The notes below the pieces were generated by a model, which ran no database searches, was not told the DNA's origin, and saw nothing but the letters and a program-made list of their open reading frames with translations. Of a stretch of 64,000 nt of DNA, positions 35,177 through 39,895 are shown piece after piece. The position numbers were made by a program, and so were the translations under genes. The DNA is taken from contig NZ_JAPEMT010000001.1 in assembly GCF_026342435.1 (NCBI RefSeq), positions 2,784,501 through 2,848,500 on the forward strand, given 5' to 3'. Position 1 is the stretch's first letter; each line of letters starts with the position of its first letter. The stretch is from Streptomyces sp. NBC_00237. GTDB taxonomy: Bacteria > Actinomycetota > Actinomycetes > Streptomycetales > Streptomycetaceae.

Positions 35177-35722
35177 TCACTTGGTGACGACGATCGCCTT
35201 CAGCAGGGTTGGGCTCTGGTCGTCGTAGAAGCCGATCACCCGGTGCCCGAACCCGAACGCGCGCTGCACCGCGTCGTGCACGATCTGGCTCGGGTTGACC
35301 AGCTGCCGCCAGGCACCGTCGACCAGCAGGTACAGGATCGGCGGCTGGCCCGGGAGGGGCTGCACGACGTCCCAGTACTGCGTGGCGGTGTTGCTCTTGA
35401 TGGCCTGGGACTCCAGGCCCTGCGGCTGCTGGCCGTAGCCCTGCTGGGCCTGCCCGTACTGCTGCTGGCTCTGCTGGCCCTGGCCGAGCTGCTGGAGCAG
35501 CTGCTGGTACGGCTGCTGCTGGCCGAGCTGCTGGAGCTGCTGGCCGAGGCCGCCGCCGGGCCCGTACTGCTGCCCCTGGCCCTGCTGCTGGCCGAACTGC
35601 TGCGGGGGCGGCGGCGCGGTGCTGTCGGAACCCTGCTGGCCCTGCTGCTGCCCCTGCCCGTACTGCTGCTGGCCGAAGCCCTGCCCGTACATCTGGCCCT
35701 GCGTCTGCGGGGTGGTGCTCAT
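35177..35722 (-). CDS. Prion-like Q/G-rich protein with a C-terminal domain shared with the adjacent protease
   Basis: An unrecognised 181-residue protein. Residues 1-102 contain 43 glutamines in the first 100, with Gly and Tyr in repeats such as YGQGQQQGQQ and GQQQPYQQLLQQLGQ. Residues about 114-181 form a compact domain: QYWDVVQPLPG, LYLLVDGAWRQLVNP, DAVQRAFGFGH, KAIVVTK. That domain aligns along its whole length with the C-terminus of the subtilase encoded 48 bases upstream. No signal peptide. Q/G/Y-rich segments favour phase separation or fibre formation. It could be a scaffold, adaptor or substrate of the protease; no function is known. Confidence 0.7.
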   Translation of the reverse strand: MSTTPQTQGQMYGQGFGQQQYGQGQQQGQQGSDSTAPPPPQQFGQQQGQGQQYGPGGGLGQQLQQLGQQQPYQQLLQQLGQGQQSQQQYGQAQQGYGQQPQGLESQAIKSNTATQYWDVVQPLPGQPPILYLLVDGAWRQLVNPSQIVHDAVQRAFGFGHRVIGFYDDQSPTLLKAIVVTK

Positions 35723-35770
35723 GCCGTGCCACCTTCCGTTCGTTGCGTCGTTGCTCTGTCTGGCCCGTGC

Positions 35771-37564
35771 TCAGCCGGTGACGACGAGGCCGACGATCTC
35801 CTCGTCCGAGAACCACACGCGTACGTCCGGCCGGCCCCCCGCGAAGGCGGCGTGCACCGCCTGGCGGATGTCGGGAGCCGGGTCGTTCAGGTTGCGCCAC
35901 GCACCCGCCACGAACAGCCGCAGCCGCGGCGGGAGTTCCCTGGGGTACGGGAGCAGCTCGTCCCAGTACCGTTCGGCCTGACCCGTGCCCACCGACGACG
36001 GCAGCAGCCGCATCGCCGCCGCCCGGATGTCGGGCCGGTTGCCGATCCGCTGCGAGGACGGCCTGCCCGGCGCGTCCTGCTGCGGGGAGCCCGAGGCGCG
36101 CAGCACCTCGCGGGCCCGCTGCGGATCCATCGGCGGGAGGTTCGCCGCCTTGAGGATGCCCTGGAGGCAGGCGAGCGCACCCACCACCACCGGCGACGCC
36201 GACGACGTACCGGCGAAGGTGTCGGTGTACCAGGCGATCTCCTCCGCACCGCCCTGGAGGTCGCCGGGACGGTCCCAGGAGCCACCCGTGGTGGTGGTCT
36301 CCCGGCCCCAGCCCTGGGCGTCCACGCGGGCGCCGTAGTTGGAGAACGCGAGCCGCGAGCGGTCAGGGCCGTGATCGCGGCCGTGCGTCCCGGGCGGGGG
36401 AGCGCCCGCACCCACCAGAACGGCCCCCGAGGACCCGTGCGACGGGTTGAAGGGGTTGCGCCACCGCTCCGGGAACTCGTCCGGCCTGCGCTCGTACAGG
36501 GCGTCGTCCAGGCTCTCCGCGCCGTTGCCCGCGGGCTCCACCACGAGCACCCCGCGCGAGGTCGCCCAGCGGATCGCCGCCAGGTCGTCGGGCCACCACT
36601 CCAGCGCGATGTACCCGCGCTGGTCGTCGCGCTCGGCGAAGTCGAACCGGGGCCCAGGACGGTGCAGTTCGATCAGGACGACGTCACCGGGGGAGAGGCG
36701 GGCGGCGGCCAACCGGATGGTGGCCGCGGTGCCCAGCGGGCGGAAGGACGCCGCCGCCGTGAGCGCCTGCGGGGCGATGCCGGTGATGCCGCGCTCGCCC
36801 GGGTCGCCGCCGATGACGCCCAGGACGGCGGTGCCGTGGTTGCGCCAGGCCAGGTCCTGCACGGGGGTGCCGACCACGACACCGGACAGTTTGTCCGCCA
36901 GGTCCTCGTGCCCCAACTGCCAGGCGCCCTCGATGTCGATGACCGTGACGCCCTCGCCGGACCCGCCGGGACGCGCCCACGCCCACGGCGCGTCGACACC
37001 CTCGGGTGCGGGCCGCAGATAACCCTGACGCCCGGTGAAGTCGGGGGTGACGGGAGCACCTTCTTTGAGGCGCTTGCCCTCCTCACCGCTCTGGTGCTGC
37101 GCCTCGCCGCCCTGCCGGAACGGCGACGACTGCTGCTGGTACGGGAACGACTGCCGCGGATACGACGCCGGGACCGCGCCCGGCTTCACGTACGCCGTCT
37201 CCACGCCCGGCAGCGCCGCCAGGCGTGCCGTCAGCTCGCGGGCCCGGTCCTCGCCGCCCCGGACACGGTAGTAGAGCGACAGCTCCTGCTCCTCGTGGGA
37301 GGCGGAGCCCTCGTACCGCTCCTCGTGACCGAACAGGGGCTCCAGGGCGAGCTGTTCGTCGCTGAGGAACATGTTCAGGGCCGAGACGTCGGAGCCCGCC
37401 GCCGACCTGACGCCCTCGGCGCCCGCCCGCAGCCGGGCCTCGCCGCGTGCGACGACGATCAGCTCCTGCTCGGCGTTCTGGTAGGTGAATCCCGCGCCGC
37501 CGGGTCCCGGGCCCGTGGTGCCTGGGCCCTCGCCGGGGTGTACCTGATCGGTCATCGCTTCCAC
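35771..37564 (-). CDS. S8 family serine protease (subtilase) with novel flanking domains
   Basis: 597 residues from GTG 37564 (ATG at 37555 also possible). Catalytic triad: Asp210 in VTVIDIEG, His243 in NHGTAVLG, Ser454 in AGTSSASPVV; Asn347 in EPAGNGAE serves the oxyanion hole. Residues 25-130 are an unrecognised alpha/beta domain (YQNAEQELIVVARGEARLR...), then a Q-rich linker (PYQQQSSPFRQGG). Residues 531-597 (RYWDELLPYPRE, FVAGAWRNLNDP, QAVHAAF, VGLVVTG) match the C-terminus of the downstream Q-rich protein. No signal peptide is seen, so it may act in the cytoplasm. Cotranscribed with the Q-rich gene. Confidence 0.85.
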   Translation of the reverse strand: MEAMTDQVHPGEGPGTTGPGPGGAGFTYQNAEQELIVVARGEARLRAGAEGVRSAAGSDVSALNMFLSDEQLALEPLFGHEERYEGSASHEEQELSLYYRVRGGEDRARELTARLAALPGVETAYVKPGAVPASYPRQSFPYQQQSSPFRQGGEAQHQSGEEGKRLKEGAPVTPDFTGRQGYLRPAPEGVDAPWAWARPGGSGEGVTVIDIEGAWQLGHEDLADKLSGVVVGTPVQDLAWRNHGTAVLGVIGGDPGERGITGIAPQALTAAASFRPLGTAATIRLAAARLSPGDVVLIELHRPGPRFDFAERDDQRGYIALEWWPDDLAAIRWATSRGVLVVEPAGNGAESLDDALYERRPDEFPERWRNPFNPSHGSSGAVLVGAGAPPPGTHGRDHGPDRSRLAFSNYGARVDAQGWGRETTTTGGSWDRPGDLQGGAEEIAWYTDTFAGTSSASPVVVGALACLQGILKAANLPPMDPQRAREVLRASGSPQQDAPGRPSSQRIGNRPDIRAAAMRLLPSSVGTGQAERYWDELLPYPRELPPRLRLFVAGAWRNLNDPAPDIRQAVHAAFAGGRPDVRVWFSDEEIVGLVVTG

Positions 37565-37716
37565 CGCTCCCCTCGGGTGCCGTGCGCTGCGTTGCCACTC
37601 TCAGGTGGCCCACCCTGCTACCGCCGTGCCGCTGCGTCCACACGAATCACGCCAACTGTGTTTGAACGAAAAGGGAAGGGGGCAGGTCGTCCGCTCATTC
37701 GTCGAGAGGACGTTCC

Positions 37717-38824: not shown

Positions 38825-39895
38825 TCACTCCCCGGAGCCTCCCGAGCCCCCGGAGTCCGACCCTGCCGACGAGCCGTCGCCGCCGTCGTCCCCGCCACCG
38901 CCGTCCGGCCCGTCCTCCGTGCCCGTACGGGGCTTCTTCGGCGGCCTGGTCCGGCCGCCGGAGGCGTCGCGGAGGTACGCCGCCCCGCCCGTCCCCGTAT
39001 CGCCGCCTTCCGTGGCGTGACCGGGGCCGCTGCTGCCGCCGCCGGGACCCGCGCCCGGATCGCGCCGCCGCAGATACCGCTCGAACTCCCGGGCGATGGC
39101 CTCGCCGGACGCCTCCGGGAGGTCCGCGGTGTCCCGCGCCTCCTCCAGCGACTGCACGTACTCCGCGACCTCGCTGTCCTCGGCGGCCAGCTGGTCCACG
39201 CCCACCTGCCAGGCCCGCGAGTCCTCCGCCAGCTCGCCGAGCGGGATGCGCAGCCCGATGAGGTCTTCGAGACGGTTCAGCAGCGCCAGCGTCGCCTTCG
39301 GGTTCGGCGGCTGCGACACGTAGTGCGGCACCGCCGCCCACAGGCTCACCGCGGGCACCCCCGCATGCGTGCACGCCTCCTGGAGGATGCCGACGATGCC
39401 CGTGGGGCCCTCGTACCGCGTCTCCTCCAGGTCCATGGTCCGCGCCAGGTCCGGATCGGAGGTCACTCCACTGACCGGAACCGGACGGGTGTGCGGGGTG
39501 TCACCGAGCAGTGCACCCAGGATCACCACCATCTCCACACCGAGTTCGTGCGCGAAGCCCAGGATCTCGTTGCAGAACGAGCGCCACCGCATGGACGGCT
39601 CGATGCCCCGCACCAGCACCAGGTCGCGCGGCTTGTCGCCGCCGGTGCGCACCACGGAGAGCCGGGTCGTCGGCCAGGTGATCTTGCGTACGCCGTTCTC
39701 CAGAAAGACGGTCGGCCGGTTGACCTGGAAGTCGTAGTAGTCCTCGGCGTCGAGCGCCGCGAACACCTCGCCCTTCCACTCCCGGTCGAGATGGGAGACC
39801 GCCGCCGAGGCGGCGTCCCCCGCGTCGTTCCAGCCCTCGAACGCGGCCACCATGACCGGGTCGACCAGCTCGGGAACTCCGTCGAGCTCGATCAC
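38825..39895 (-). CDS. PAC2 family protein (SCO1662/ParJ-like)
   Basis: A 356-residue protein of the PAC2 (proteasome assembly chaperone 2) superfamily. Core motifs: VMVAAFEGWNDAGDAASAAV near 12-32, LVLVRGIEPSMRWRSFCNEI near 93-112, VVILGALLGDTPHTRPV near 122-138, and ALLNRLEDLIGLRIPL near 208. The C-terminal 80 residues are a disordered Gly/Ser-rich tail ending SGGSGGSGE. I recall SCO1662 next to mshC being reported as ParJ, a protein that interacts with the segregation ATPase ParA; the link for this gene is by position and family, not shown. Mycobacterial homologue Rv2125 has the same fold. Confidence 0.8.
   Translation of the reverse strand: MIELDGVPELVDPVMVAAFEGWNDAGDAASAAVSHLDREWKGEVFAALDAEDYYDFQVNRPTVFLENGVRKITWPTTRLSVVRTGGDKPRDLVLVRGIEPSMRWRSFCNEILGFAHELGVEMVVILGALLGDTPHTRPVPVSGVTSDPDLARTMDLEETRYEGPTGIVGILQEACTHAGVPAVSLWAAVPHYVSQPPNPKATLALLNRLEDLIGLRIPLGELAEDSRAWQVGVDQLAAEDSEVAEYVQSLEEARDTADLPEASGEAIAREFERYLRRRDPGAGPGGGSSGPGHATEGGDTGTGGAAYLRDASGGRTRPPKKPRTGTEDGPDGGGGDDGGDGSSAGSDSGGSGGSGE

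What the first reader, a model, noticed from the sequence alone, without database searches (positions are those of the whole stretch)
35177..37564. Protease and prion-like protein that share a C-terminal domain
Two adjacent minus-strand genes, 48 bases apart, encode an S8 protease with intact triad (Asp210, His243, Ser454) and a Q/G/Y-rich protein (43 Gln in the first 100 residues). Their last ~68 residues align end to end: YWD...P.P, L.L.V.GAWR.L..P, AV..AF, VVT near the terminus. The protease also has a Q-rich linker and an unrecognised N-terminal domain, and lacks a signal peptide. A common module on an enzyme and a condensate-prone partner suggests recruitment of the protease to an assembly, or a protease-substrate/adaptor pair. 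I know of no described system with this layout.
Basis: partly seen in the sequence, partly recalled or inferred. Interest (0 to 1): 0.8.

Follow-up and report, generated by a model that had tools for sequence, protein, structure and literature searches.

The report
Protease and glutamine-rich partner sharing tail
Some soil bacteria (Streptomyces) carry a two-gene unit in which a protein-cutting enzyme and a glutamine-rich, sticky-looking protein end in the same small folded domain, which suggests an undescribed way of tethering a protease to a scaffold; this is inferred from sequence and has not been tested in the lab.

Summary
Window 35177-37555 (minus strand) is a two-gene unit in a Streptomyces genome: a leaderless S8 protease P and a Gln-rich protein Q. 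Their last ~72 residues are homologous (hhalign probability 98, E 6e-14). The tail folds confidently as an OB-fold (pLDDT 91) and matches no Pfam, PHROG or PDB sequence.

Q lies directly after P in 32 of 37 Streptomyces genomes and in all of the 80 best-matching loci. In an independent sample of 247 Streptomycetales genomes the tail occurs exactly twice, on P and Q, in 29 of the 30 genomes that clearly have it, and on nothing else. The pair sits at one syntenic site. Four tailed proteases without Q carry more changes at otherwise invariant sites, and one has lost its catalytic Asp. Q's 44% Gln, uncharged composition and one motif are kept in 112 of 112 copies.

Best explanation: the OB tails co-assemble, so that Q scaffolds or holds the protease. 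This is inferred. I found no tail-tail coevolution, and condensation is untested. Corrections: the protease starts at ATG 37555; its Q-rich linker is local to this species group; the N-terminal domain is probably a subtilase prodomain (weak evidence).

The parts
35771..37555 (-). Protease gene P: S8 (subtilisin-family) peptidase, 594 aa, no signal peptide, OB-fold tail
   Evidence: ATG start at 37555 supported by homologues beginning MTDQ/MSEQ
37166..37474 (-). N-terminal prodomain-like region of P (residues ~28-130), ending ...AYVKPGAVPA
   Evidence: Conserved in tailed and tail-less relatives; secreted relative L203 has it after a signal-like peptide and matches Pfam Peptidase_S8_N weakly, E 0.012, below cut-off. 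Inferred.
37049..37165 (-). Variable linker between prodomain and catalytic domain (Q-rich only in this species group)
   Evidence: linker 12-47 aa, mean 4% Gln over the family
35990..37048 (-). S8 catalytic domain; Asp207 codon 36937-36935, His240 36838-36836, Ser451 36205-36203
   Evidence: Pfam PF00082; triad and Asn344 conservation
35774..35989 (-). C-terminal tail of P (72 aa), homologous to the tail of Q; OB-fold by homology
   Evidence: as conserved as the catalytic domain
35177..35722 (-). Q-rich gene, 181 aa, 48 bp after the protease stop codon
   Evidence: adjacent in 32 of 37 genomes and 80 of 80 loci
35429..35722 (-). Low-complexity Gln/Gly/Pro/Phe/Tyr region of Q, almost free of charge
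   Evidence: 80 loci: Q 44%, G 14%, P 8%; one Lys in 112 low-complexity regions
35483..35536 (-). Conserved motif LQQLGQQQPYQQLLQQLG inside the low-complexity region
   Evidence: Present in 112 of 112 Q proteins
35180..35401 (-). C-terminal OB-fold tail of Q (five strands, helix between strands 3 and 4)
   Evidence: AlphaFold2 mean pLDDT 90.7, strand order E-E-E-H-E-E; Foldseek matches are mostly OB-fold proteins
37650..37680 (-). Conserved upstream element; dyad CAACTNGNTTT-S-AAANCNAGTTG in many relatives, only the right half intact here
   Evidence: single copy per genome in 4 of 6 genomes searched. Regulator unknown.

Best explanation
A dedicated effector-plus-scaffold pair. P is a leaderless, probably cytoplasmic S8 protease made as a zymogen (N-terminal prodomain) that carries an OB-fold tail. 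Q is its partner: the same OB tail joined to a long uncharged Gln/Gly/Pro-rich region with aromatic residues. The tails most likely co-assemble into mixed oligomers, as OB-folds often do. Several Q chains then surround each protease, and their low-complexity arms gather it into a condensate or fibre that concentrates it, stores it, or holds it inactive until a signal. Shown: tail homology, OB-fold model, linkage, exclusivity of the tail to these two genes, constraint on Q composition and motif, and relaxed constraint on proteases without Q. Inferred: tail-tail binding, condensation, zymogen control, and the stimulus.
For: Tail homology. Confident OB-fold, a fold that commonly oligomerises (general knowledge). 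Strict pairing: 32 of 37 genomes, 29 of 30 in an independent order-wide sample with exactly two tails per genome, 80 of 80 named loci, always protease first and Q second, 12-161 bp apart, between a PAC2 gene and mshC. No Q without P was seen. Four tailed proteases without Q show 6, 17, 35 and 40 changes at sites at least 99% conserved, against a median of 0 and a maximum of 6 in 116 with Q; one has Asp207 to Ala. No second tail exists elsewhere in those genomes. Q composition and the LQQLGQQQPF-type motif are conserved in 112 of 112 while length varies. The SSB protein is a precedent for OB-fold plus disordered linker driving condensation in bacteria (titles and abstracts PMC12143593, PMC11947617).
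Against: No complex could be modelled: only two single-chain jobs were allowed, and the protease model failed (pLDDT 38). P-tail and Q-tail distances show little coupling beyond the catalytic domain (partial r 0.13), and Q-tail subtypes switch about 7 times on the P tree without a matching switch in the P tail, as if the P tail need not match the Q tail closely. Two Q-less proteases form a basal clade at another locus and may never have had Q, so their divergence need not mean decay; the other two are sisters, so the decay signal rests on about two independent cases.
Confidence: 0.42

Rival explanations
1. The two tails do not bind each other but recognise the same third ligand (a glycan, nucleic acid or protein), bringing protease and Q separately to one target. 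The OB tail works as a binding module, like the lectin modules of related proteases.
For: Tail-less relatives carry other targeting modules: a DUF346 propeller (L202) and a neighbouring RicinB/I66-like trefoil gene (L082). Among listed matches the highest TM-scores are glycan-binding B subunits of AB5 proteins (TM up to 0.65 by target length, E 0.08-0.3). No tail-tail coevolution.
Against: The fold matches are not significant (none at E <= 0.001). Nucleic-acid binding is unlikely for W-type Q tails (mean net charge -3.2) and P tails (-1.4). A tail found on exactly two adjacent genes and nowhere else suggests a dedicated pair more than a general binding module.
Confidence: 0.25
2. Q is the dedicated substrate, decoy or inhibitor of P: the shared tail docks it on the protease, which cleaves or is occupied by the Gln-rich arm.
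For: Same operon and shared docking domain; P is under less constraint when Q is missing; a tail-less relative (L082) sits next to an I66-inhibitor-like trefoil gene (weak: E 0.038, below cut-off).
Against: The low-complexity region keeps composition rather than any fixed cleavage-site sequence beyond one motif. Q tails evolve about four times faster than P tails (0.45 against 0.12 mean distance), unusual for a tight inhibitor. Loss of a dedicated inhibitor should be more harmful than decay of the enzyme.
Confidence: 0.15
3. The pair is a stored cytoplasmic defence effector released on lysis or grazing; the tails act as a binding and oligomerising part and Q as its carrier.
For: No signal peptide; relatives joined to lectin-type modules; variable presence in about 15% of Streptomyces species; superficial likeness to the subtilase-plus-OB layout of AB5-type proteins.
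Against: Single conserved chromosomal site with vertical inheritance rather than mobile islands; no PADLOC match; nothing ties it to predators, phages or delivery machinery; sequence search of the protease finds alkaline proteases and intracellular subtilisins in the PDB list, not SubA.
Confidence: 0.12

Closest known systems
Peptidase family S8 (subtilases), including leaderless actinobacterial relatives
   Same: Catalytic Asp/His/Ser and oxyanion Asn; prodomain-like N-terminus; a relative with 52% identity lacks the tail
   Different: C-terminal OB-fold tail and obligate-looking Gln-rich partner gene, found only in Streptomyces
[quoted passage not shown]
   Same: OB-fold joined to a Gln/Gly-rich prion-like region; SSB is the notable prion-like family in bacteria (PMC6400439) and condenses (PMC12143593, PMC11947617)
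   Different: Order of domains reversed; no sequence match to SSB; tail neutral to acidic; protease partner
AB5-type proteins, subtilase cytotoxin SubAB in particular
   Same: A subtilase combined with an OB-fold domain; fold-level resemblance of the tail to B subunits (not significant)
   Different: No signal peptide, tail fused to the protease, Gln-rich partner, catalytic domain not closest to SubA
Effector-associated-domain and amyloid-signalling modules (PMC7159879, PMC8195603)
   Same: A homotypic domain shared by an effector (often a peptidase) and its neighbour-encoded partner
   Different: No NTPase, STAND or vWA-MoxR component next to the pair; tail is an OB-fold, not a death-fold, EAD or amyloid motif
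Type VII secretion mycosins
   Same: S8 peptidase of actinobacteria; weak NCBIfam match
   Different: 24 bits against a cut-off of 279; no signal peptide or membrane anchor; no ESX genes among the neighbours examined

Membership tests
Peptidase family S8 | Profile match above the curated cut-off | tested here: met
   PF00082 29.2 bits, cut-off 21.8
Peptidase family S8 | Asp/His/Ser triad and oxyanion Asn | tested here: met
   Asp207, His240, Ser451, Asn344; conserved in 120-121 of 121
Peptidase family S8 | N-terminal prodomain (I9 or S8_N) | tested here: inconclusive
   Only a distant relative matches PF16361, E 0.012, below cut-off; structure model failed
T7SS mycosin | NCBIfam equivalog score | tested here: not met
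   24.1 bits against 278.75
AB5 / SubAB | B-subunit OB-fold | tested here: inconclusive
   OB-fold modelled; matches to B subunits E 0.08-0.3, TM up to 0.65 by target length
AB5 / SubAB | Secreted subunits with signal peptides | tested here: not met
   No hydrophobic N-terminal segment in P or Q
AB5 / SubAB | Separate pentameric B subunit | not testable with these tools
   Oligomeric state cannot be measured or modelled here
SSB | SSB sequence profile | tested here: not met
   No Pfam match for either tail
SSB | Basic ssDNA-binding OB surface | tested here: not met
   Net charge, used as a proxy: W-type Q tails -3.2, F-type +1.4, P tails -1.4
Effector-associated / amyloid-signalling modules | Same domain on effector and neighbouring partner | tested here: met
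Effector-associated / amyloid-signalling modules | NTPase or STAND regulator in the locus | tested here: not met
   Conserved neighbours are mshC, PAC2, SMP30-like, glpD, glpK
Bacterial prion-like proteins | Gln-rich low-complexity composition | tested here: met
   44% Gln over 80 homologues
Bacterial prion-like proteins | Self-propagating aggregation or condensation | not testable with these tools
   Needs an experiment

The most novel reading that the evidence does not exclude
A bacterial signalling or storage device in which a protease and a prion-like scaffold co-assemble through a common OB-fold tail, so that condensation of the scaffold switches proteolysis on or off. This would be a new class of regulated intracellular protease, with the partner gene born by duplication of the protease's own tail.
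Probability: 0.3. Interest if true: 0.88.

Novelty: new variant of a known kind. Interest (0 to 1): 0.68.

Why it matters
Prion-like and Gln-rich proteins are little studied in high-GC actinobacteria, and functional partners of such proteins are rarely obvious from the genome. Here the partner is fixed by operon, by a shared domain found on no other protein in the genomes searched, and by decay of the protease when the partner is missing. If the tails co-assemble, this gives a compact, genetically accessible case of a protease controlled by a low-complexity scaffold in a multicellular bacterium. It would allow a direct test of whether compositional conservation of a Gln-rich region serves condensation.

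Tried and rejected
Family libraries: Pfam, NCBIfam, PADLOC and PHROGs gave nothing for Q or the tails; PDB sequence search with the tail profile gave nothing. Other weak tail hits in the own genome (L003, L004) are unrelated frames or an alpha/beta hydrolase. Structure of the full protease failed through a shallow alignment, so the prodomain assignment rests on weak evidence. Mirror-tree and label tests for tail-tail coevolution were negative. A search for the upstream dyad elsewhere found only the one site per genome. Consensus promoter and terminator scans were empty. Nucleic-acid binding by the tail was considered and downgraded on charge. The literature searches found no description of the pair; two surveys of bacterial prion-like proteins do not mention Streptomyces in their main text. 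A genus search at n=400 failed on the server and was rerun at 250.

Full report
WHAT IS THERE. The window lies in a 9.2-Mb, 10-contig genome (70.6% G+C in the window). Its nearest named relative at this locus is Streptomyces spiroverticillatus, 91% identical in the protease. On the minus strand a protease gene (P) is followed after 48 bp by a Gln-rich gene (Q). Homologues place the start of P at ATG 37555, so the protein has 594 residues and the triad is Asp207/His240/Ser451. P matches Peptidase_S8 above the Pfam cut-off. Neither protein has a signal-peptide-like hydrophobic stretch. Q has 52 Gln in 181 residues, 43 of them in the first 100.

THE SHARED TAIL IS REAL. Profiles built from 34 P tails and 32 Q tails align with probability 98.2, E 6e-14, 34% identity over 64 columns. 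Each profile finds all tails of the other set. The Q tail, modelled with 65 relatives from both sets, folds confidently (mean pLDDT 90.7) as three strands, a helix and two strands. That is the strand order of an OB-fold, and most of the top Foldseek matches are OB-fold proteins (eIF5A, telomere and SSB proteins, aminoacyl-tRNA synthetase anticodon domains, B subunits of AB5 proteins), although none is significant. The tail is therefore assigned to a fold, not to a family. Pfam, PHROGs, NCBIfam and PDB sequences hold no relative.

THE PAIR IS A UNIT. A search of 247 Streptomyces genomes found P in 37; Q stands directly 3' in 32. A separate tail-profile search of 247 Streptomycetales genomes found 30 with a clear hit: 29 had exactly two (P and Q) and one had P only; Q was never seen alone and the tail never on a third protein. 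All were in one genus of eight. In the GTDB contig scan, all of the 80 best-matching loci are Streptomyces and all carry P then Q and nothing else with a tail; these 80 were chosen as best matches, so they are not an unbiased sample. The pair sits at one place, between a PAC2-family gene and mshC. Its intergenic gap and the length of Q vary, its order does not.

WHAT SELECTION KEEPS. In 80 homologues the region before the tail is 44% Gln, 14% Gly and 8% Pro, with hardly any charge. Phe and Tyr make up about 6%, and one Lys occurs in all 112 low-complexity regions together. Length varies from 79 to 182 residues, but a motif of the LQQLGQQQPFQQLLQQLG type is present in 112 of 112, and most begin MSTTPQ. 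This is constraint on composition and on one short motif. The P tail is as conserved as the catalytic domain (mean distance 0.12 against 0.14); the Q tail is much less so (0.45).

PROTEASES WITHOUT Q. Four tailed proteases lack Q (L024, L071, L025, L206), and no second tail is found elsewhere in their genomes. At sites at least 99% conserved they carry 6, 17, 35 and 40 changes, against a median of 0 and a maximum of 6 in 116 proteases with Q; L025 has lost the catalytic Asp. A fifth genome (G192) keeps only a C-terminal fragment at the usual site. L024 and L071 are sisters that lost Q; L025 and L206 are sisters at the base of the tree, at a different locus, and may never have had Q. The signal is thus about two independent events and is suggestive, not proof. 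It allows the scenario that the tail arose on P first and Q was born by copying it.

THE WIDER FAMILY. Relatives without the tail exist in other actinobacteria: G682, G495, G668, G531 and, within Streptomyces, G251. They keep the N-terminal and catalytic domains or the catalytic domain alone, and some carry other modules: a DUF346 propeller in L202 and a neighbouring RicinB/I66-like trefoil gene in L082. One (L203) has a signal-like peptide in front of the same N-terminal domain, and that domain matches Pfam Peptidase_S8_N weakly (E 0.012, below cut-off). I read the N-terminal domain as a subtilase prodomain, which would make P a zymogen; this is inference.

HOW IT MOST LIKELY WORKS. A domain confined to two adjacent genes, one an enzyme and one an uncharged Gln-rich protein, is most simply an assembly module. 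OB-folds often oligomerise, and bacterial SSB shows that an OB-fold with a disordered linker can condense (PMC12143593, PMC11947617). I propose that P and Q co-assemble by their tails and that Q concentrates or holds the protease. Against this, distance correlation beyond the catalytic domain is small (partial r 0.13), and Q-tail subtypes change about seven times on the P tree without a P-tail counterpart. No complex could be modelled. Rivals are a common third ligand, Q as substrate or inhibitor, and a stored defence effector.

COMPARISON AND NOVELTY. P is an S8 peptidase by profile match and triad. The pair is not a mycosin, not an SSB, not an AB5 protein (no signal peptide; non-significant fold match) and not an NTPase-linked effector module. 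It works most like homotypic effector-partner modules but fails their defining context. I rate it a new variant of a known kind, with a categorically new device as the novel reading. Papers held here do not describe it; subscription journals are largely missing from that library.

Noticed in passing
window 37650-37680; L114-L193 upstream of the protease: A conserved upstream block with a dyad (CAACTNGNTTT-S-AAANCNAGTTG in many species) about 100 bp before the protease start; a single site per genome in 4 of 6 genomes searched, so probably a dedicated operator or promoter.
   Followed up: partly
window 38825-39895 (-): PAC2-family gene beside the pair, conserved in 80 of 80 loci. From PAC2 membership and the mshC neighbourhood it is probably parJ (SCO1662), a regulator of ParA in sporulation (PMC4255298); no functional link to the pair is shown.
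   Followed up: partly
L202:5373-7955: A tail-less relative of the protease (G495) ends in DUF346 propeller repeats (lectin-like), showing that this protease family swaps C-terminal modules.
   Followed up: partly
L082:6896-9017: A tail-less relative (G251) is followed by a small RicinB / Inhibitor_I66-like trefoil gene, possibly its inhibitor or targeting partner.
   Followed up: partly
L025:5959-9632; L206:4630-8446: Basal Q-less clade: the protease lies behind an MreB-like gene and, in L025, a TerB gene, and in front of a gene that looks like a type III polyketide synthase; L025 has lost the catalytic Asp.
   Followed up: partly
Q tails of L114-L193: Two Q-tail subtypes (YWD...WR and YID...FR), about 7 switches on the protease tree, suggesting replacement of Q between lineages; the subtypes differ in net charge (-3.2 against +1.4).
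   Followed up: yes
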